Positions 26,270 to 38,100 of a stretch of 44,241 nucleotides of DNA are shown here, piece after piece. The notes beneath the pieces were generated by a model. It searched no databases, was not told the origin of the DNA, and worked only from the letters and a program-made list of their open reading frames with translations. The position numbers and the translations under genes were made by a program. The first letter of the stretch is position 1; every line of letters starts with the position of its first letter. Origin of the DNA: Chloroflexota bacterium (GTDB lineage: Bacteria > Chloroflexota > Anaerolineae > J036 > Brachytrichaceae); the NCBI GenBank assembly GCA_023382055.1, contig JAMCQN010000102.1, positions 1 through 44,241 on the forward strand, given 5' to 3'.

Positions 26270-26331
26270 AGTTGTCTATCTGGTCAGGTACCAAGTGACC
26301 GGCATGCCGATAAGCAGGAGAGGTGTTGCCC

Positions 26332-27288
26332 ATGATTGACGCCACAACCAGCAACATAACAAACGTACATGTGACAGACACGCTTAGCCGGAAGGAAGCA
26401 TTTAGACGTTGGCGATACCGCCATCGCCATGCCGTAGAAGGATGGACAATCCTCACACCGATATTGCTCTATTACGGCATCTTTTTCCTGTTTCCAGTAA
26501 TTGCCAGCCTGTTACTCAGCTTCATGAAATGGTCCGGTCTGAGTGGCTCTCCCGAATGGGTGGGATTAGCCAATTACCGTCGGTTCTTATCGGATCCGAC
26601 CTATATCACCATCATCGTCAATACGATGGTGTTTGCCGTCTCCATTCTGATCGTGCAAACAGCCCTGGCCGTTGTCATCGCGTTGATGTTGAATGCCAAG
26701 ATCAAGGGGCGCGGATTATTCCGCGCCGCCTGGTATGTTCCCACGCTCACATCGGCTGCAGTCATGGCGCAGGTGGCGTTCGTGTTCATCTCACCGGCCG
26801 ACGGCGTAATCAACATGGTTCTGAGACAACTGAAGCTGCCCCCCATTATCTTCTACACACAGGTCGACTGGATGCGGGTCATTATCATCGCGTATTCGGT
26901 GTGGCGCGGCGTCGGAGGCGCAATCATCCTTTACCTGGCCGCTTTGCAGGGCATCCATCCGGAACTCTATGAAGCGGCGCAGGTTGACGGCGCTAACGGA
27001 CGTCAGTTGTTTCGCCATATCACTGTCCCCTTGCTTGCGCCGATGACCGTCTTCGTTCTGATCACCGGCATTATCGGCACAGCCCAGATTTTCGAGACCG
27101 TCATGTTTTTAAGCAAGGGTGGCCCGGCCAACCTGACCAACGTTCTCATGCTGCAGATCTATCAGGACGCCTTTGCTAACCAGAGTCTGGGTCTCGCCAG
27201 TACTGGTGCGATGATCCTGGGCTTGCTGCTGATCGTGTTCTCATCCATCAATATGCGCATCTTGAGCCGCGGCCGTGTTGGCAATTAG
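26332..27288 (+). CDS. CUT1 sugar ABC transporter permease (MalF/UgpA-like)
   Basis: A 318-residue inner-membrane subunit with six predicted helices after a hydrophilic start. The loop that meets the ATPase has YEAAQVDGANGRQLFRHITV (about residues 220-240), the EAA motif. It forms the import channel with the next gene product. AGGAGAGG precedes the ATG at 26332 by about 8 bases; an in-frame GTG 9 bases earlier overlaps this site and is less likely. First gene of the plus-strand operon; the gap to the next permease is 18 bases. No ATPase gene is present. Confidence 0.92.
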   Translation: MIDATTSNITNVHVTDTLSRKEAFRRWRYRHRHAVEGWTILTPILLYYGIFFLFPVIASLLLSFMKWSGLSGSPEWVGLANYRRFLSDPTYITIIVNTMVFAVSILIVQTALAVVIALMLNAKIKGRGLFRAAWYVPTLTSAAVMAQVAFVFISPADGVINMVLRQLKLPPIIFYTQVDWMRVIIIAYSVWRGVGGAIILYLAALQGIHPELYEAAQVDGANGRQLFRHITVPLLAPMTVFVLITGIIGTAQIFETVMFLSKGGPANLTNVLMLQIYQDAFANQSLGLASTGAMILGLLLIVFSSINMRILSRGRVGN

Positions 27289-27306
27289 ACACTCAGGAGA
27301 AACAAC

Positions 27307-28224
27307 ATGACATTATCCAGACGACCAAGATTCAAAATCAGCCGGGGTTTGCTCTATACACTATTGATCGTGTCCAGCGCAGTCATGGCATTCCCATTGC
27401 TCTTCATGTTCCTGGGCTCGATCGGCACAACGGCGGACTATACTCGCAGCCCCTGGTTACCAATCCCATCTGTGCCAACTCTGGAAAACTACGCGATCAT
27501 CCTTAATCCGGGTAAAACGGATGTATGGAAATGGGTCGCCAATACGTTAATCCGTGCAGCATGGTATATCGTCATTCCCGGTATCATATCCGTGTTGTGT
27601 GGTTATGTCTTCGCTAAGTTGAGCTTTCGAGGCCGCGACGCGGCCTTCACCTTCCTGCTAATGTCGTTGATGCTGCCGGGTATCGTCTTTCAAGTGCCAA
27701 CATTCGTGATGATGGCGCGCTTCCCGCTTGCCGGCGGCAATAACATACTCGGCCAAGGAGGCACAGGATTCATCAATCAATGGCCGGCGTTGCTGATACC
27801 TGGCCTGGTCAGTGTCTATTACATCTTCATGCTACGGCAGACGTTTTACAGCATACCGGCGGATTTTGAAGAGGCGGCCCGGGTCGACGGGGCGGGCACA
27901 TTACGCTGCCTTTTCAGCGTTTACTTACCGATGCTCAAGCCAGTACTAACAGTTCTGGTCATCTTCCAGTTTGTGGGCATCTGGAACGATTACATCTGGC
28001 CTTTGTTTGTGACATCGGGGAATCCACAAATCTATGTGATGGCGTTGGGTTTCCAGTATCTCCAGCAGGCAGGCAATTCACTGAAGGGCCTGCCGAATAC
28101 CGTCACTGATTATCCCTTTACGTTCGCACTGGCGGCTTGCTCGATACTGCCACTGGTCATCATGTTCCTATTCCTACAGAAATACTTCGTCGAAGGAGTG
28201 GCAGGATTCGCCATTAAAGGTTAA
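27307..28224 (+). CDS. CUT1 sugar ABC transporter permease (MalG-like)
   Basis: A 305-residue second permease subunit with six helices. The EAA loop reads FEEAARVDGAGTLRCLFSVY (about residues 190-209), and the C-terminal YFVEGVAGFAIKG is the usual MalG ending that touches the ATPase. AGGAGA stands 6 bases before the ATG. It partners with the preceding permease and the binding lipoprotein downstream. Confidence 0.93.
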   Translation: MTLSRRPRFKISRGLLYTLLIVSSAVMAFPLLFMFLGSIGTTADYTRSPWLPIPSVPTLENYAIILNPGKTDVWKWVANTLIRAAWYIVIPGIISVLCGYVFAKLSFRGRDAAFTFLLMSLMLPGIVFQVPTFVMMARFPLAGGNNILGQGGTGFINQWPALLIPGLVSVYYIFMLRQTFYSIPADFEEAARVDGAGTLRCLFSVYLPMLKPVLTVLVIFQFVGIWNDYIWPLFVTSGNPQIYVMALGFQYLQQAGNSLKGLPNTVTDYPFTFALAACSILPLVIMFLFLQKYFVEGVAGFAIKG

Positions 28225-28225
28225 G

Positions 28226-28284
28226 TGGCGGTTGTTATCCGCATTGAACGTTGAGCAAACCATGCGGATTTATGTAAACCGCCA
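28226..28284 (+). promoter_or_regulatory. nested stem-loop between permease and binding-protein genes
   Basis: Two nested perfect stems: TGGCGGTT (28226-28233) with AACCGCCA (28277-28284), and TCCGCAT (28238-28244) with ATGCGGA (28262-28268). It begins 1 base after the permease stop. Such intercistronic structures often block 3' decay or partly end transcription, giving unequal levels of transporter parts. Nothing else is evident in the rest of the 170-base gap. Confidence 0.55.
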
Positions 28285-28394
28285 GGAGGAGTAAGAGGAG
28301 GCAAAATTACTGCATAAGCTACGTCAAAGACAATACGTTCGGCTCATATTCAGAATCCATTTCAGTTTCATAAGATCAGGAGAAAAGTAATCCC

Positions 28395-29834
28395 ATGAAG
28401 CGAAACATTTCTCGACGTGAATTGCTTAAGGCTTCCGCCATCGGCGGCGCCGGCCTTTTGCTCGCAGCCTGCGGCGGCGCCACCCCTACGCCACAGACTA
28501 TTGTCGTAACCTCGGAAGTCATCAAGGAAGTCAAGTCGACGGTGGAAGTGACCAAGCAGGTTAATGTCGAAGTCACCAAGGAAGTTCAGGTGACTGCGGA
28601 CCCAAATGCCGGACCTCAGACAATGACGGTGTGGGGCTCTGGTCTGGACCTGACACAGATGGACAAGGATCCATCCGGCGCAGGCGCCGCCCTACTGGCT
28701 CATAAGAATCTCTTCCTGTCCAAGCACCCGAATGCCAAGCTGGTCTGGGAAGATCATGGCTGGGATGAGACGCTGCGCCAGAACATCGTCAGCGCGCTGC
28801 TGGCCGGCACGCAGCCCGATGCCATCGTCGGTGAGAACTTCTTCCAGCAGTACGCGGCGCTCAAGGCGCTGCTGCCGTTGGACGACGTCACCCCGCCCGC
28901 GGTCACCGACAATGCGATCCTGGGAACGCATAAGGCTGCCCTCTACGGCGGCAAGAACTACGGCTTCTCATGGATTTCCGGATGCTTCGGATTCGAAGTA
29001 AACCCAAACGTCCTTAAAGATGTCGGTCTGCCTGAACAGGTTCCCGCCACGTGGGACGACCTGCTGGCTGCTTCCAAGACCGTCACCGATAAGAGCGCCG
29101 GCAAGGCGTATGGCTATACGCTGCAAGGCCCGGTCGGCTTCAGCGTCGGCGGCATGTTCCGCCTGGCGGTGTACATGCAGCAGCTCGGTGTCACGCTGAA
29201 CAAGCCCGACCAGTTTGACTATCCGAACTTCAATGACCCAAAGGGCCAGCCGGTATGGGAATTCGTGCGCAAGATTCTGCCTTACACCCCGCCCGGACTG
29301 GTCTTTGAACCGGATGAGGGCAAAGTGTACACGCAGTTGTTCGCCGGCAAGTCGGCGCATCAGATGGCCGGCTCCTGGCACGTGGGCTGGGCCAAGCAGA
29401 ACAAGCTCATGAACGCCATGTACGGCGCCGTGCCAATCCCAACTGGCGGCAAGCCAGCCAGCTATGTGGTCGGCAACGTGATCTATGGCGCAATGGCGGC
29501 CACCAAGGTGCCCGATCTGGCCAAGGACTGGGTCATCGTCAGCCAGGACGACTCGGTACAGAAAATCGTGTTCAAGTCGACGGGTCGCCTGCCTTCGACC
29601 AAGTCATCCATGGAAGCGCTGCTGGCCGGCACAGATGCGGACGATGCGACCAAGCAGTTCGGCAAGCTGTTGAAGGACAGCGACCTGGGCATTCTGCCGC
29701 AGTGGACGAAGGAACCCAACAAGCTCAACAGCATTTGGAACGACCTGTTCACCGCAGTGCTGACGACCCAGACCGACGTCAAGCAGTTGATGGCCGACGC
29801 TCAGAAGAAGGCCGAAGACGTCCTGAAGGCTTGA
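28395..29834 (+). CDS. sugar ABC transporter substrate-binding lipoprotein
   Basis: A 479-residue CUT1 binding protein. The N terminus has a Tat-type motif SRRELLK (residues 6-12) and a lipobox LAAC with the lipid cysteine at 26, so it is likely exported by Tat and anchored. A Val/Glu/Lys-rich linker (about 36-68) follows, with repeats such as VEVTKEVQVT. The remaining 400 residues are the type-I sugar-binding fold with WEDHGWDETLRQNIVSALLAG. It captures oligosaccharides for the two permeases upstream. A hairpin at 29859-29893 follows. Substrate is not inferable from sequence alone. Confidence 0.92.
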   Translation: MKRNISRRELLKASAIGGAGLLLAACGGATPTPQTIVVTSEVIKEVKSTVEVTKQVNVEVTKEVQVTADPNAGPQTMTVWGSGLDLTQMDKDPSGAGAALLAHKNLFLSKHPNAKLVWEDHGWDETLRQNIVSALLAGTQPDAIVGENFFQQYAALKALLPLDDVTPPAVTDNAILGTHKAALYGGKNYGFSWISGCFGFEVNPNVLKDVGLPEQVPATWDDLLAASKTVTDKSAGKAYGYTLQGPVGFSVGGMFRLAVYMQQLGVTLNKPDQFDYPNFNDPKGQPVWEFVRKILPYTPPGLVFEPDEGKVYTQLFAGKSAHQMAGSWHVGWAKQNKLMNAMYGAVPIPTGGKPASYVVGNVIYGAMAATKVPDLAKDWVIVSQDDSVQKIVFKSTGRLPSTKSSMEALLAGTDADDATKQFGKLLKDSDLGILPQWTKEPNKLNSIWNDLFTAVLTTQTDVKQLMADAQKKAEDVLKA

Positions 29835-30766: not shown

Positions 30767-32974
30767 ATGTCTGTGTTTGAGGTCAAAGATCATCACGGCT
30801 CACCCACCTTGTTTATGGATGGGCAACCGGTCTTCACCACTATCTACCTGACGGTCCGCAATTTTCGCAACCCGGACACAGGCTGGCAACCCGACCCGCA
30901 TTTCGAGGAGTTCCGCAATGCGGGTTTTCACTTCTACTCAATCGAACTGCCGACGCGGTTCGATGATGCATACGATGCCGCAACCGGATCATTCAATCCT
31001 GCGGCATTCTCGCGGCTTGACGATCTTAAGCGGTATGTTGCCATCGATCCACAGGCCAGGTTCCTGTTGCGCGTGGGCGTGGAACCGCGCGGCGAGCAAT
31101 CCGCATGGATACGGCAGCATCGCGACCAATGCGAAGTGTTGGAGGAGCGCGCCAAAGGCATCTATCCCACGCCTTCGTATGCCTCGAAGATCTGGCTGCA
31201 TGATGCGGCTGAGTTCATTCGCACGCTGATCCGTTACATCTTTGAGCATGGCCTGTCTGACTGTATCCTGGGCTATCTGATCTGCGGCGGCGACAGTTCC
31301 GAGTGGGTGAAGATCGGCCCGATGGAAGACTGGGCAGGCGACTTTTCGCTTCCGATGCAGCAGGAGTTCAGCCGCTGGCTCAAATCCAGGTACGGTGACG
31401 AGCAGTCGTTGCGGACCGCATGGGATGATCCAACCGTAAGTTTCGACCGACACAATCTGGTACCGTCGCCGCAGGAACAAGCCGAAACGGACCTGTTCCT
31501 GTTCAAAGACCCCCGCAAACGCCGCAAGGCCATCGACCATTTCCAGTGTCTGGCCGATCTGGTAGCCGGTGATATCGACTATTTATGCAGCGTCGCCAAG
31601 GAGGCCTGCGGGCGCGCCCACCTCGCGGGCGCCTTCTATGGCTACGTGCAGGAGATTGTCTGGAACAACGGCTTCTTCGGCCAGCGCCTCGCGGATGCGG
31701 ACGTCGCGCATGCGGCGGGAGCGCGCTCCGGACATGCAGGACTGAAGAAAGTGCTGGCATCGCCGCACATCGATTTTCTCAGCAGCCCTTATTCCTACGG
31801 CTTTCGCGGCGTCGGCGGCGAAGGCAGCTTCATGTCGCCACAGGAGAGCGTGCGCCGCGCCGGCAAACTTTGGATCAGCGAAGAGGATATGCGCACCCAT
31901 CTGTGGCCGACTGGTTCCTATTATGGCCAGACGCATAACACCCGGGAAACCGCCAATGTCCTGAAACGCCAGATGGCGAATCTGATCACACATGGCGCAG
32001 GAGCGTGGTGGTGTGATTGGGGCAAGCCAACCGGCGGGGCTTTTGCCGAGCCTGAATTGATGCAGGTATTCAGCAGCTCGCTAGAGATCGGGCGCGCAGC
32101 GCTTGATCTGCCCGACAGGACATCAGCCTCCGAAGTAGCCGTCGTGATCGATGCCGAGAGTTCATTCTACCGATCCACCTTGAACAACTTCGACATGCCT
32201 TCATGGCGCAACCACGCCTGGGGCATCGTCAGGATGGGCGCGCCGGTCGATGTCATTTTGCTCAGCGATTTACTGGAAGGGCGCGCACGCGACTACAAGT
32301 TCTACTTCTTCGCCAACACCGTCCACTTCTCCGCAGCAGAGCGCGAACTGGTCAAACGCATCCTGCGCCGAGATGGCAAATCTGCATTGTGGGTTTATGC
32401 GCCCGGGTTTGTTGATGAGGACTTGTCTGTCGAACATTGCGCCGACCTCACGGGCATCAGGCTGCGCATGACGCCCAGGCAGTGGGGCGCGCATATCTAC
32501 ATCAGCAACTTCGAGCACCCCATTACGCGCAATCTGCCGACCTCCACATTCTGGGGAACAGATATGAGGCTGGGACCTTTGTTCACAGTCAACGATCCGG
32601 ATGTAACGACGCTGGGAACCGTGGTCATCAATCAAGGCCGGTGCGAGCCGGGATTCGTTATTCGCGCAACGAAGGAGTGGACGAGCGTCTATTCTGCGGC
32701 GCCGAACATACCGGCGGGCGTGCTGCGCGAACTGGCGCGCCACGCAGGGGTGCACATCTACAGCGAATCAGAGGATGTGATGTATGCGGACCGCCACTTT
32801 ATCGCGCTTCACACCGTGCGCGCCGGCGCGAAGACCATACGCCTGCCGCATCAAGCTAGTGTGTGGGAAGCGTACTCCGGGCGGCTGGTCGCAGCGCAGT
32901 GCGAGGAATACATCGATCACATGGAAGCCGGGGCTACGCACCTGTATTACTACGGCCGGCAGCCGCTAACGTAA
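30767..32974 (+). CDS. GH42-like (clan GH-A) glycosidase, paralogue 1
   Basis: A 735-residue putative beta-glycosidase with a barrel and a Rossmann-like trimerisation-type domain. The barrel starts after a short beta-part (FMDGQPVFTT). The likely acid/base Glu is E179 in GGDSSEW and the nucleophile is E372 or E373 in ISEED. Clan GH-A enzymes usually have Asn before the acid/base Glu, and here it is Ser. Domain B (about residues 440-620) with VAVVIDAES and YKFYFFANT resembles GH42 trimerisation. No signal peptide, so it acts inside on imported oligosaccharides. GAGGG lies 6 bases before the ATG. It is a paralogue of 35875-38100. Confidence 0.75.
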   Translation: MSVFEVKDHHGSPTLFMDGQPVFTTIYLTVRNFRNPDTGWQPDPHFEEFRNAGFHFYSIELPTRFDDAYDAATGSFNPAAFSRLDDLKRYVAIDPQARFLLRVGVEPRGEQSAWIRQHRDQCEVLEERAKGIYPTPSYASKIWLHDAAEFIRTLIRYIFEHGLSDCILGYLICGGDSSEWVKIGPMEDWAGDFSLPMQQEFSRWLKSRYGDEQSLRTAWDDPTVSFDRHNLVPSPQEQAETDLFLFKDPRKRRKAIDHFQCLADLVAGDIDYLCSVAKEACGRAHLAGAFYGYVQEIVWNNGFFGQRLADADVAHAAGARSGHAGLKKVLASPHIDFLSSPYSYGFRGVGGEGSFMSPQESVRRAGKLWISEEDMRTHLWPTGSYYGQTHNTRETANVLKRQMANLITHGAGAWWCDWGKPTGGAFAEPELMQVFSSSLEIGRAALDLPDRTSASEVAVVIDAESSFYRSTLNNFDMPSWRNHAWGIVRMGAPVDVILLSDLLEGRARDYKFYFFANTVHFSAAERELVKRILRRDGKSALWVYAPGFVDEDLSVEHCADLTGIRLRMTPRQWGAHIYISNFEHPITRNLPTSTFWGTDMRLGPLFTVNDPDVTTLGTVVINQGRCEPGFVIRATKEWTSVYSAAPNIPAGVLRELARHAGVHIYSESEDVMYADRHFIALHTVRAGAKTIRLPHQASVWEAYSGRLVAAQCEEYIDHMEAGATHLYYYGRQPLT

Positions 32975-33217: not shown

Positions 33218-34840
33218 TCAGGGTTCCGTCGCCGTTATCGGTTTGCGGTGGCGGACAACGACATCCGTCGTCAGCACCATCGTCGCCACACTCGCCGCAG
33301 TCGCCAGGGCATTTTCGAGCACATTGGCGCTGTCGACGATGCCGGCCTTGCGCATATCCTCCACGCGACCCGTCAGGACGTTCAAACCGTGACCGCGGCC
33401 ATCTCGCCTGGCCCGCGCGATGGTGGCAGATGGCGGCTCGCCTGCGTTGGCAGCGATGGCGCGCATCGGTTCCTCCAGCGCGCGCGCAACCGCGCTGATG
33501 CCTGCGTGCACGTCCGGGTCATCAGACAGGAGCGCCTTGACCGCATCGATACAGTCGAGAAAAGCCGCACCGCCGCCGGCGACCATGCCGGACTCCGTCA
33601 CCGAGTTCATGAAGTGCACGCTGCGCTCGGCGATTTCCTGGCGAAGTTTCTGCTCCGTTTCCGTGCGCGCGCCGACCGACAGCATGGCTGTACCGCCCAT
33701 CAGACGCCCCAGGCGTTTGCGCAATGCGTCAACCTCAGCCTTATCTTTCGTCGCGCCGATTGCCTTGCGCAGCACAGAGATATGGGCGCGCAGCGCTTTA
33801 GCAGAACCTTTACCGGCGACAAGACCGAATTGCAGCGTATCCGCCCACAATCGGCGTGTCTTGCCGATCATGTCCGCGCTAAACAGGGATAGATCCGCCT
33901 CCGTATCGCCGACTAAAGGCGTTCCGCCGGTAATGACCGCAAGATCATCGAAGAAATACTTGCGCTCACTCGATGATGCGGGTGTCTTGACAGGCAGGCA
34001 CTTGAAGGTGCCTTTCTGGTGGTTATGCGCCAGAACGCTGATCACCGAGTCCGACATCCCGTTACAGACGATGCCGATAGCGGTGTGCCCGGCCGACATG
34101 ACTGTACCCACCGCCCTGGCCAGCGCCTCGACATTGCTGATGCGTCCATCGACCAGCATGATCGCTGCATCCTGCAGTTCAGCGCGGCGCATCGCTGTGC
34201 CGCTGAATGCCGAAGATATCCAGCCCGTGCGCCAGAATGCGCCTTCGACATATTCGCGCTCCAGGCTGCGCCCGCTGCTTGACTGAACGTCAACGTATCC
34301 GCTCATGCCGATGATGCTGTAGATTTCACCCAGCATATCCGCCAGTTCATCATCATGGCAATGGGAACGCGCGATCTGGGCCAGGGCTTTTTGCGTCGTC
34401 ACCGGCGTAGCTTGCGCCTGTATCGCCCCGACCGCTGCCGAGGTGGCCTGCCGGATTCCTTCGCGCACGCGCATGGCGTTGGCACCCGCCGCTACAGAAC
34501 GATAAGCATGATGAAGCATCGCCTGGGCCAGCACTGCTGTGGTCGCCGTGCCGTCGCCCACGCGTTCACCGACCTGCCAGACCGCCTGGCGCATGAGCAT
34601 CGCGCCCACGTCGGAGGCATCATCACCGATCTGGATAATGCGGCGCGCCAGCGTACCGGCATCACTGAGCAATTCGGGAGAGCGGTCGCGCGACACACGC
34701 TCCATTCCCACATAGCGCGGAAACGGCCCGATTGTGGGACGCACGACGTTCACAATCAGGTCAATACCACGCAGGAGATCCCTGTGCACTCGCGGTTGGA
34801 ATTCTGTAGATGGGCGTCTCAAGGCAATCGTCTTTCTCAT
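33218..34840 (-). CDS. divergent GroEL-like (Cpn60) protein
   Basis: A 540-residue group I chaperonin homologue. Ordinary GroEL folds proteins with GroES and ATP. The fold is clear: RPTIGPFPRYVGMERVSRD near residue 34, GDGTATTAVLAQ at about 95-106 (GDGTTT in GroEL), VAGGGAAFL at 420-428, and VLTGRVEDMRKAGIVDS near the end. Aligned from memory with E. coli GroEL, D52 and D87 match D60 and D96. The catalytic D398 falls at R406 (IAERSVHFM), so ATP hydrolysis may be lost or altered. The methionine-glycine tail is absent (ends HRKPITATEP), and there is no groES nearby. It may assist a specific client or be a structural paralogue. It lies opposite the glycan operon, just after the SDR gene. Confidence 0.8.
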   Translation of the reverse strand: MRKTIALRRPSTEFQPRVHRDLLRGIDLIVNVVRPTIGPFPRYVGMERVSRDRSPELLSDAGTLARRIIQIGDDASDVGAMLMRQAVWQVGERVGDGTATTAVLAQAMLHHAYRSVAAGANAMRVREGIRQATSAAVGAIQAQATPVTTQKALAQIARSHCHDDELADMLGEIYSIIGMSGYVDVQSSSGRSLEREYVEGAFWRTGWISSAFSGTAMRRAELQDAAIMLVDGRISNVEALARAVGTVMSAGHTAIGIVCNGMSDSVISVLAHNHQKGTFKCLPVKTPASSSERKYFFDDLAVITGGTPLVGDTEADLSLFSADMIGKTRRLWADTLQFGLVAGKGSAKALRAHISVLRKAIGATKDKAEVDALRKRLGRLMGGTAMLSVGARTETEQKLRQEIAERSVHFMNSVTESGMVAGGGAAFLDCIDAVKALLSDDPDVHAGISAVARALEEPMRAIAANAGEPPSATIARARRDGRGHGLNVLTGRVEDMRKAGIVDSANVLENALATAASVATMVLTTDVVVRHRKPITATEP

Positions 34841-34934: not shown

Positions 34935-35774
34935 TCACAATACCGGACCCGGTATGTGGATCGGAAAGCCCAGATCGTGCTGTTCCTCGGCAAGTCTCCT
35001 GCGACGAGCCAGGGCGCTATACGTCATCCGTGAAAGTGCGCCATCTATCGTCACCGTCGCGCCGGTAATATAGTGCGAGTCCTCGGTGACAAGGAAATGC
35101 GCCAGCGCGGCAACCTCGCTGGGCAAACCATTCCTGCCTTCGTAAGGGATGTTTGGGTTCGCCACATCCGGGCTATCCGTCTCCAGCCTGCCGCGGATGG
35201 CGATGCCGCCAGGCCGGATGGCGTTGGCGCGTATCCCATACGGGGCGAGTTCAAGCGCCATATCAATGACGAGTTGTTCCAACCCGATCTTCGCCGCCGA
35301 GTAATGCGGGCAGTAATGGGGCACGACACTGTGGATTGACGAGATGCACACGATGCGCCCGCGTATGCCGGCCTTGATCATCTCGCGGGCTGCGCGCTGG
35401 CTCAGCATAAAAGGCCCGATCAGATCGGTGTCGAATACGCTGCGGATATCCTGCCTGGAAACGCCGAGGAAACCGCCTGGCGCATTGATGCCGGCGTTAT
35501 TCACGACGATGTCCAGGCGGCCAAAAGATTGCAGCGCCTGATCGACCATACGGTCGATATCGCTCTCTTTCCGCATATCGGCTTCTAATGTCACGGCGCG
35601 CCGTCCGTGCGCCTCAATCGCCTGGGCTGTCACAGGCATATTGGCGACATCGATATCCGCCACGACGATGTCAGCGCCCGATTCGGCTAACCGCACTGCA
35701 ATAGCGCGACCGATGCCCTTCGCCGCACCAGTGACAATCGCAACCTGCCCGAGTAGTGGTTGTATGTTTGACAA
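34935..35774 (-). CDS. short-chain dehydrogenase/reductase (SDR)
   Basis: A 279-residue classical SDR, NAD(P)-dependent. It has VTGAAKGIGRAIA at residues 15-27, NNAGINAPGG around 93, and the catalytic YSAAK motif at about 160. It probably oxidises a sugar or sugar derivative, consistent with the glycan cluster. The start is a TTG with GAGGG 7 bases upstream (MSNIQPLL). It is divergent from the second GH42-like gene, with a 100-base intergenic region, and precedes the chaperonin-like gene by 94 bases on the same strand. Confidence 0.85.
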   Translation of the reverse strand: MSNIQPLLGQVAIVTGAAKGIGRAIAVRLAESGADIVVADIDVANMPVTAQAIEAHGRRAVTLEADMRKESDIDRMVDQALQSFGRLDIVVNNAGINAPGGFLGVSRQDIRSVFDTDLIGPFMLSQRAAREMIKAGIRGRIVCISSIHSVVPHYCPHYSAAKIGLEQLVIDMALELAPYGIRANAIRPGGIAIRGRLETDSPDVANPNIPYEGRNGLPSEVAALAHFLVTEDSHYITGATVTIDGALSRMTYSALARRRRLAEEQHDLGFPIHIPGPVL

Positions 35775-35874: not shown

Positions 35875-38100
35875 ATGCAAGCATGTATTAAACCCCATAA
35901 TGGTGCACCGACCCTGTTTCTTGATAACCGCCCGGTTTTCGGCGGCCACCAGTGGCTATCGAACCACCCGGGACCCAACGGCTTCCCCGGCGCGGATGCC
36001 GTGCGCCTGTTCGGGCAGGCCGGCGTTCACATTAACGCCCTGGCCGTCGCGGCAGCGTCCGATTGGTGCGGCCACTGGTGCGGGCCTCGCCCCGGCATGG
36101 CCGGAGACTACGATTTCACAATGGTGGAGCCCCAGTTACGCGCCATCCTCAAGGAAGATCGCGACGCGCTATTCCACATGCGCATTTACTTCGAAACCGC
36201 CGAATGGTGGAATCAGTTGCATCCCGAAGAATGCGAACTCGCATCGGATGGCCGGCGGTTAAACCAGTCCTATGCATCGGAGGTATGGCGTGAGGACGTC
36301 CGGAAATTCCTTACGGCATACGTTGATCATCTGAAGAAGATCGGCCTGGCCGACCGCGTGATTGCGTATCAGGTACAGGCTGGCATCTGCGGCGAGTGGA
36401 TCAAAAACACCACATCCATGCAGCCTGTCACCGGGGATTACAGCGAACCGATGCGGCGGCACTTTCGCAGTTGGCTGCGTGTGCGCTATAAAGTTGACGC
36501 TGCGCTGCAACAAGCCTGGGCTGACGACAGCGTGACGCTGGAGTCAGCGGAAGTCCCATCTGCCGACGCGCAGTTGAACGGCACCCACGGGTTACTGCGC
36601 GATCCGCGCCGCGAGCAACCGGTAATCGATTACTATCATTGCCTCGCGGAGTTGACCGCAGAGGACCTGATCGGTTTCTGCCAGGTTGTGAAGGACTTGA
36701 CGGATGGCAAGGCTTTGGCCGGCGCATTCTACGGCTACATTATGGATCTGGCCTGGAACGACAATTTCTTCGGCGCCGACACCAGCGGCGATTACTCTAC
36801 ACTGCAGCGCAGCGGTCATCTCGGATTGCGCAAGGTATTGGAATCGCCGGCGGTCGATTACATCGTCAGTCCCTACGGCTACGCATTCCGCGGCCTGGGC
36901 GGCGACGGACTGCCGATGCCCCCGACCGAATCCGTGCGTCTGCATAACAAGCTCTACATTCTGGAGGAAGACTCGCACCTGCACAACGAGATGGACCCGC
37001 AGGGACGCAACTTCAATCGCAAGCACACCATTGCGATCAACCAACGTGAGTTTAACCAGACCATCACGCACGGACTGGGCATCTGGTGGTTTGCCGACTA
37101 CCCGGCAGGCAGTTACGCGCGCCAGAATCCCAGCTTCCAGCCCTGGCTTGAGAAGTTCCAGAAGTTGGGGACATGGGCGATGCAACTGGATCGCTCGCCG
37201 CAGTCGGAAGTGGCCGTCCTGGTAGACGACGAAAGCTTCATGTATGAGTCCGACCGCAACAATATCGACCTGCCATTGATATTTCGCCAGCGCGTCACGT
37301 CACTCGCACGGTTCGGCGCGCCGCATGATGTTTACCTCCTGAATGACCTGCTCGACGGCAAACTGCCTGAATATAAGCTCTACATCTTCTTGAACCCGTT
37401 TCACCTGAACGCCGCGCGCCGTGCAGCGCTCAACCAGCAGGTGAAACGCGATGGGAAAACGGCTGTGTGGCTCTACGCGGTGGGCTATCTGAAGGATGAG
37501 CCTGCGCTGGCGCATATGACCGAATTGACAGGTTTTCGATTCGGCAAATGGGATCAGCCCTGGGGGCCGTTTATGCATGTGACGGACTTCGCACATCCCA
37601 TCACAAAAGACGTTCCGCAGGACCTGTTCTGGGGCGCTACAGCTCCGCTCGCGCCGCTCTTCCATCTCGAAGACCCCGAGGCAATCGAGCTTGGTCAAGT
37701 CGTCTACAACCTGGGACGCTGTCAGCCGGGACTGGGCATCAAGACGCTCCCTGCCAGCGAGGGTTTGACCGGCAACTGGAATTCGATTTACTGCGCCACG
37801 CCCGATATTCCCGCCCCGTTGTTGCGTGGCATTGCCCGCTTCGCCGGCGTGCATCTCTACAGCAACGCCGGGGATGTGCTACACGCGACCCTGGATTTGC
37901 TGGGCGTACACACCGTGTCCGGTGGAGAGCGCGATTTCAGGCTGCCGCGCCGGGTAGAGGTCGTAAACGACCTCTACGCCGACAAGCTGATCGCGCGCGA
38001 TGTCGATTGCTTCCATGTCAATCTGCAACCGGCATCCACCAGCCTGTTCTACACGGGACAAAGAAGTCTTCTCGCCGAATTAACTCCAACTTTATCGTGA
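35875..38100 (+). CDS. GH42-like (clan GH-A) glycosidase, paralogue 2
   Basis: A 741-residue paralogue of the protein at 30767-32974, sharing LAGAFYGY, RSGH-GLRKVL, SPYGYAFRG and EED segments and the same length. The predicted acid/base is E174 in AGICGEW, preceded by Gly rather than Asn. The nucleophile is E364 or E365 in LEEDSH. The C-terminal half carries the trimerisation-like domain (AVLVDDESF) and a final beta-domain. There is no signal peptide. The ATG at 35875 has no clear Shine-Dalgarno, but it aligns with the start of the paralogue. It leads into the enolase-superfamily gene with 12 bases between. Two such enzymes suggest two linkages in one substrate. Confidence 0.75.
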   Translation: MQACIKPHNGAPTLFLDNRPVFGGHQWLSNHPGPNGFPGADAVRLFGQAGVHINALAVAAASDWCGHWCGPRPGMAGDYDFTMVEPQLRAILKEDRDALFHMRIYFETAEWWNQLHPEECELASDGRRLNQSYASEVWREDVRKFLTAYVDHLKKIGLADRVIAYQVQAGICGEWIKNTTSMQPVTGDYSEPMRRHFRSWLRVRYKVDAALQQAWADDSVTLESAEVPSADAQLNGTHGLLRDPRREQPVIDYYHCLAELTAEDLIGFCQVVKDLTDGKALAGAFYGYIMDLAWNDNFFGADTSGDYSTLQRSGHLGLRKVLESPAVDYIVSPYGYAFRGLGGDGLPMPPTESVRLHNKLYILEEDSHLHNEMDPQGRNFNRKHTIAINQREFNQTITHGLGIWWFADYPAGSYARQNPSFQPWLEKFQKLGTWAMQLDRSPQSEVAVLVDDESFMYESDRNNIDLPLIFRQRVTSLARFGAPHDVYLLNDLLDGKLPEYKLYIFLNPFHLNAARRAALNQQVKRDGKTAVWLYAVGYLKDEPALAHMTELTGFRFGKWDQPWGPFMHVTDFAHPITKDVPQDLFWGATAPLAPLFHLEDPEAIELGQVVYNLGRCQPGLGIKTLPASEGLTGNWNSIYCATPDIPAPLLRGIARFAGVHLYSNAGDVLHATLDLLGVHTVSGGERDFRLPRRVEVVNDLYADKLIARDVDCFHVNLQPASTSLFYTGQRSLLAELTPTLS

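What the first reader, a model, noticed from the sequence alone, without database searches (positions are those of the whole stretch)
33218..34840. Chaperonin-like protein with the catalytic Asp replaced by Arg
GroEL D398 aligns without gaps to R406, while D52 and D87 are kept, and the GGM tail is missing. It sits alone, without groES, opposite a glycan operon and beside an SDR gene. It may be an ATP-binding but slow or non-cycling cage, perhaps for a single client.
Basis: partly seen in the sequence, partly recalled or inferred. Interest (0 to 1): 0.65.

Follow-up and report, generated by a model that had tools for sequence, protein, structure and literature searches.

The report
Chaperonin family that lost its catalyst
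This gene encodes a relative of the GroEL protein-folding machine whose ATP-burning aspartate has become an arginine; it belongs to a large, strongly conserved family of such proteins in Chloroflexota bacteria that has no GroES partner of its own and is often encoded right beside a beta-propeller protein.

Summary
Window 33218-34840 (minus strand, 540 aa) is a group I chaperonin with R406 at GroEL D398. D52 (D60) and D87 (D96) are kept and the GGM tail is absent. It is neither an error nor a lone mutant. All 28 searched genomes of its family carry at least one such divergent Cpn60, 26 of them beside a canonical groEL. The copies are under purifying selection (dN/dS about 0.07-0.10). In a tree of 86 sequences all 46 Arg copies fall in one clade, essentially confined to Chloroflexota; Lys arose separately. 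The family also swaps T90 for Ala and replaces GGM with a short tail ending in Pro (103 of 127 copies). The Mg and nucleotide loops stay intact, while GroES-contact and apo-state latch residues decay. No copy sits beside groES. Instead, 51 of 116 testable copies are followed at once by a BNR/Ycf48-like beta-propeller gene, against 0 of 21 canonical groELs. Best reading: a nucleotide-binding, hydrolysis-poor, GroES-independent chaperonin with a narrow client or partner set, ancestrally the propeller. ATPase, rings and client are inferred, not shown. The window copy has no propeller beside it, so its own client is unknown. I found no prior description in the papers searched.

The parts
33218..34840 (-). 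divergent group I chaperonin (Cpn60), 540 aa
33623..33625 (-). codon of R406, position of GroEL D398 (catalytic Asp)
34661..34663 (-). codon of D60, position of GroEL D52
34553..34555 (-). codon of D96, position of GroEL D87 (Mg ligand); followed by G97, T98 and A99 (GroEL T90)
33221..33259 (-). short C-terminal tail ending in Pro, in place of the GGM tail
34935..35774 (-). short-chain dehydrogenase gene directly upstream on the same strand (94 bp gap); possible co-transcription, conserved beside the chaperonin in one congener (L059)
26323..29834 (+). two permease genes and a solute-binding protein gene of a sugar-type ABC transporter on the opposite strand; such genes recur beside family members elsewhere

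Best explanation
The gene encodes a member of a Chloroflexota family of group I chaperonin paralogues in which ATP turnover has been given up or greatly slowed while the nucleotide pocket is kept. SHOWN from sequence: the catalytic Asp398 is replaced by Arg in a whole clade, and T90 by Ala with it; the Mg and nucleotide loops are kept; the GGM tail is replaced by a short tail ending in Pro; no groES is linked; a BNR beta-propeller gene directly follows nearly half of the family genes. INFERRED: the protein binds ATP or ADP, hydrolyses it very slowly or not at all, and works without GroES as a holding or assembly cage, or a long-lived scaffold, for a small set of clients. The ancestral client or partner is the propeller; the window copy has either moved to another client or meets its propeller (encoded on contig C74) in trans. 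The Arg may neutralise the phosphates or pair with D52 and hold helix M down over the nucleotide; this last step is conjecture.
For: Family-wide loss of D398 with Arg kept in 46 tree rows of one clade and an independent Lys clade; T90 to Ala alongside; D52 also lost in a third of Arg copies, so both catalytic Asp residues are gone there; D87, GGG loop and D495 kept; GroES/substrate-face residues Y203, V264, R268 and latch residues R197, E255 lost; no groES beside 85 family genes and no extra GroES matching the family's distribution; purifying selection; propeller next in 51 of 116 against 0 of 21. E. coli D398A: normal ATP binding, 2-3% ATPase, still encapsulates and folds (PMC3326522, PMC3813556). 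CCT folds beta-propellers (PMC6599039).
Against: No ATPase, ring or client data. The window copy and its paralogue lack an adjacent propeller. 10 Pro-tail copies keep D398 and 29 have Glu, so loss of catalysis is not universal in the wider family and the propeller link does not depend on it. An Arg could conceivably support a different hydrolysis geometry together with D52.
Confidence: 0.5

Rival explanations
1. It co-assembles with the canonical GroEL of the cell as an inactive subunit that tunes a mixed ring, in the manner of chloroplast Cpn60 alpha and beta.
For: A canonical GroEL is present in 26 of 28 genomes of the family. Several equatorial contact positions (R452, K105 as Arg, A109, G110) are kept in most copies.
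Against: Only about 30% identity to the canonical protein, many subunit-contact residues changed (R197, E255, K226, T522, D523), and operon linkage to a propeller rather than to groEL.
Confidence: 0.12
2. It is no longer a cage at all: a monomeric or low-order nucleotide-binding scaffold that serves sugar ABC-transporter assembly or sensing together with the propeller.
For: An ABC permease is the next gene upstream on the same strand in 28 of 85 cases; own-genome C167 copy precedes binding-protein and permease genes and the C74 propeller follows two permease genes. Latch and GroES-contact residues are lost.
Against: The three-domain fold and equatorial core are fully kept. ABC transporter genes are abundant in these genomes and their background rate was not measured.
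Confidence: 0.15
3. It is an active ATPase chaperonin that uses another residue (D52 or E397) for catalysis and a GroES in trans.
For: D52 is kept in two thirds of Arg copies, including this one; a canonical GroES exists in the cell and an orphan GroES in 8 of 28 genomes.
Against: A third of the Arg clade lacks D52 as well; T90 is replaced; GroES-contact residues have decayed; the orphan GroES does not follow the family's distribution.
Confidence: 0.15
4. A decaying duplicate of groEL on its way to a pseudogene.
For: The catalytic residue is lost.
Against: dN/dS 0.07-0.10, full-length frames, presence in 28 of 28 genomes, and Arg and terminal Pro kept at low overall identity.
Confidence: 0.01

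Closest known systems
GroEL / Cpn60 (group I chaperonin, PF00118, TIGR02348)
   Same: Fold, length, equatorial nucleotide loops, D87, GGG loop, D52
   Different: D398 to Arg, T90 to Ala, no GGM tail, one-residue insertion after the D52 region ('ARRII' for 'ARE-IEL'), degraded GroES face, no groES linkage; scores below the GroEL equivalog cut-off
Laboratory GroEL D398A
   Same: Catalytic Asp removed; expected ATP binding with very slow turnover (PMC3326522, PMC3813556)
   Different: A natural lineage, with a basic residue instead of Ala, T90 also changed, and GroES contacts decayed, which D398A retains
Chlamydial GroEL2/GroEL3 (NF038370, NF038369)
   Same: Duplicated groEL diverged at ATP- and GroES-binding regions beside a normal GroEL (PMC1892554)
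   Different: Scores only 125-130 bits against cut-offs of 600; different phylum; no propeller linkage known to me
Actinobacterial and other Cpn60 paralogues without a GGM tail; MmoG-type dedicated chaperonins
   Same: Paralogues with other tails beside a GGM copy (PMC11978752, PMC5904260); MmoG is encoded with one client system (PMC7994243, from its search listing and my own knowledge)
   Different: Not reported in those texts to lose D398; here the tail ends in Pro and the operon partner is a beta-propeller
Eukaryotic CCT/TRiC with beta-propeller clients
   Same: A chaperonin associated with beta-propeller proteins (PMC6599039)
   Different: CCT is group II with eight different subunits, a built-in lid and an active ATPase; this protein is group I

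Membership tests
Group I chaperonin superfamily (Cpn60/GroEL-like) | Full-length equatorial-intermediate-apical fold with best match to group I | tested here: met
   Pfam 144 bits; NCBIfam GroEL models 246-367 bits against 62 or less for thermosome/CCT models; model matches GroEL structures, TM about 0.8
Group I chaperonin superfamily (Cpn60/GroEL-like) | Heptameric ring or double ring | not testable with these tools
   No oligomer prediction or experiment was possible
Canonical GroEL (TIGR02348 equivalog) | Score above curated cut-off | tested here: not met
   335 against 582 bits
Canonical GroEL (TIGR02348 equivalog) | Catalytic D398 | tested here: not met
   Arg at the position
Canonical GroEL (TIGR02348 equivalog) | groES beside the gene | tested here: not met
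Canonical GroEL (TIGR02348 equivalog) | GGM-rich C-terminus | tested here: not met
   Ends VVRHRKPITATEP
Canonical GroEL (TIGR02348 equivalog) | ATPase and GroES-dependent folding | not testable with these tools
   Needs protein
Chlamydial GroEL2/GroEL3 | Score above curated cut-off | tested here: not met
   125 and 130 bits against 600
Group II chaperonin (thermosome/CCT) | Best match to group II models | tested here: not met
   62 bits or less against cut-offs of 400 or more
Chloroflexota Pro-tail Cpn60 family defined here | Groups with the Arg398 clade, tail ends in Pro, 'ARRII' insertion | tested here: met
Chloroflexota Pro-tail Cpn60 family defined here | Adjacent BNR beta-propeller gene (common, not universal) | tested here: not met
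   No propeller in the window; one unlinked on contig C74

The most novel reading that the evidence does not exclude
A bacterial chaperonin that no longer burns ATP and has exchanged GroES for a beta-propeller partner: a propeller made in the same operon is either its sole obligate client, a bacterial counterpart of CCT and its beta-propeller clients, or a pseudo-sevenfold cap on the sevenfold ring (short forms read by eye as about seven blades, long forms about fourteen). The family would then be a separate functional class of group I chaperonin.
Probability: 0.2. Interest if true: 0.88.

Novelty: new variant of a known kind. Interest (0 to 1): 0.66.

Why it matters
Chaperonin function is usually equated with ATP cycling and a GroES lid. 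A large natural family that loses the catalytic Asp (with Arg or Lys in its place in separate clades), keeps the nucleotide pocket, drops GroES contacts and stays under strong selection suggests that a non-cycling chaperonin can be useful. It also offers a ready operon partner, a beta-propeller, with which to test single-client chaperonins.

Tried and rejected
(1) Sequencing error or lone mutation: rejected, Arg recurs across genera. (2) Pseudogene: rejected. (3) A locked conformation read from AlphaFold: the variant model resembles GroES-bound GroEL (TM about 0.8 against about 0.6 for open forms), but the canonical control leans the same way (0.62-0.70 against 0.57) with a worse model, so it is not used as evidence. 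(4) A charge-swap argument (R398 with D52, K52 with E398): K52 never occurs with R398, but there are too few independent pairs to test. (5) A dedicated second GroES: an extra groES occurs in only 8 of 28 genomes while the family occurs in 28 of 28. (6) SDR or glycan enzymes as clients: among the loci read, the SDR is next to the gene only here and in one congener. (7) Paper searches for a prior description found none; that library is open-access only.

Full report
OBSERVATION. The gene lies at 33218-34840 on the minus strand and encodes 540 residues. It is a full-length group I chaperonin: Pfam Cpn60_TCP1 scores 144 bits; the closest NCBIfam subfamily (PRK12849) is above its cut-off, but the GroEL equivalog model gives 335 bits against a cut-off of 582. 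In the phmmer alignment to Thermus Cpn60 the stretch from helix M to the GGG loop is ungapped and R406 falls on D398. D60 and D96 fall on D52 and D87. The GGM tail is missing.

THE GENOME'S OTHER COPIES. The genome is a 3.88 Mb, 207-contig assembly, 83% complete. It holds a canonical groES-groEL pair on C194 with D398 and a GGM tail, a second divergent Cpn60 on C167 that also has Arg at 398, and an orphan groES on C55 between a glutaredoxin-like and a thioredoxin-reductase-like gene.

A FAMILY, NOT A FREAK. A search with the protein over all 28 held genomes of its GTDB family (8 genera, the only family of its order among those held) found at least one divergent copy in every genome, up to three, beside a canonical GroEL in 26 of 28. 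The two genomes without a canonical copy in the assembly (G002, G019) are also the two without any GroES; that looks like an assembly gap and suggests that the divergent copies bring no GroES of their own. Further copies occur in other Anaerolineae and Chloroflexota families. A scan of 84,980 named species genomes returned 80 loci, almost all from Chloroflexota bins, including Ca. Roseilinea; weaker hits from other phyla (L224, L225) are canonical D398 copies, and one 'Bacteroidetes' bin (L197) may be misbinned.

RESIDUES AND TREE. Over 151 distinct sequences, position 398 reads R 64, D 34 (24 canonical, 10 with a Pro tail), E 29, K 9, A 5, Q 3, Y 2 and N, H, S once each, with 2 truncated; 103 of the 127 non-canonical copies end in Pro. 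In the maximum-likelihood tree of 86 sequences all 46 Arg copies fall in one group of 56 rows (SH-aLRT 99). Lys copies form a separate well-supported group of six plus one loner. Pro-tail copies that keep D398 lie between these and the canonical clade. The tree is a quick one, unrooted, with SH-aLRT support only. Asp against not-Asp needs three changes. T90 is Ala or Val in 45 of 46 Arg copies and Ala in all 7 Lys copies, but Thr in 11 of 13 Asp copies; these are few independent events. D87, the GGG loop and D495 are nearly invariant, and a third of Arg copies have lost D52 as well. The GroES/substrate face is degraded (Y203, V264, R268 across the clade; in the window protein L234A, V264H, E238G), and R197 and E255, which hold the apo state together in E. 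coli GroEL (PMC3326522), are mostly lost.

SELECTION. dN/dS is 0.07 against the nearest relative (213 codons, dS 1.4) and 0.10 against the next (540 codons, dS 1.8, near saturation). The gene is under purifying selection.

NEIGHBOURS. No family gene has groES just upstream (0 of 85), against 7 of 9 canonical genes. Of 116 non-canonical copies with at least 250 bp of downstream sequence, 51 are followed on the same strand by a BNR/Ycf48-like beta-propeller gene; of 21 canonical copies, none (Fisher p 3e-5, which ignores relatedness; 39 of 75 after thinning to under 75% identity). The gap is usually 0-60 bp. The pair occurs with R, K, E, D, A, Q, H, N and Y at 398, so it is probably old; parsimony needs 18 changes of adjacency on the tree. 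Genomes of the window's family hold only 0-5 matches to this propeller profile; with about 3500 genes per genome (my estimate) chance adjacency would be about 0.1%. The propellers begin without an obvious signal peptide (by eye) and match PSII_BNR and Sortilin-Vps10. In one group of relatives the propeller lies about 8 kb downstream on the same strand. In 28 of 85 cases the gene just upstream is an ABC permease, commonly in a binding protein-permease-permease-chaperonin order. The C167 copy precedes binding-protein and permease genes, and the unlinked propeller of this genome on C74 follows two permease genes. In a side clade with K52/E398 the next gene is a polytopic membrane protein without a Pfam match. 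The background rate of ABC operons was not measured, so this second link is weaker.

WINDOW CONTEXT. The SDR gene ends 94 bp upstream on the same strand; one promoter-like match (9 of 12, 34904-34875) lies between them, no more than shuffles give. The SDR gene adjoins the chaperonin in one congener (L059) but not in L060. The opposite-strand genes are a sugar-type ABC transporter and glycoside-type enzymes.

MECHANISM. E. coli D398A binds ATP normally, hydrolyses it at 2-3% and still encapsulates and folds protein (PMC3326522, PMC3813556). The family makes such a change permanent and adds a basic residue, so a nucleotide-binding, hydrolysis-poor cage or scaffold is the most likely state; that is inference. 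GroES-independence is inferred from lost contacts and linkage. The propeller as client or partner is inferred from operon linkage and from the folding of eukaryotic beta-propellers by CCT (PMC6599039). For the window copy itself the client is unknown.

COMPARISON AND VERDICT. It is a member of the group I chaperonin superfamily but fails the tests for canonical GroEL, chlamydial GroEL2/3 and group II. It works most like a natural D398A-type GroEL without GroES. Divergent Cpn60 paralogues are well known (PMC5904260, PMC11978752, PMC1892554); a phylum-wide family with the catalytic Asp replaced by Arg, a Pro-ended tail and a propeller partner was not found described in the papers searched. New variant of a known kind; interest 0.66.

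Noticed in passing
L006:1465-1758 (contig C55 of the window's genome): An orphan groES between a glutaredoxin-like gene and a thioredoxin-reductase-like gene; a second groES occurs in 8 of the 28 family genomes.
   Followed up: partly
window 30767-32974: A 735-aa protein without any Pfam match that clusters with the GH42-like 741-aa protein at 35875-38100; the two flank the chaperonin-SDR pair on the opposite strand.
   Followed up: no
L173-L214 (K52/E398 side clade), e.g. L177:11746-12666: A polytopic membrane protein of about 300 aa with no Pfam match is the next gene in 13 of 19 E398 cases, in place of the propeller.
   Followed up: partly
G000:C74:10103-10990: An unlinked propeller of the same family in the window's genome, downstream of two ABC permease genes.
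   Followed up: partly
L064:8921-10804 and L068:7321-8175: Read by eye, the short propellers show about seven repeats and the long ones about fourteen, matching the sevenfold symmetry of a chaperonin ring; possibly coincidence, as seven blades are common.
   Followed up: no
G002 and G019: These two assemblies lack both a recognisable canonical groEL and groES while holding divergent copies; probably assembly gaps, but worth a check.
   Followed up: no
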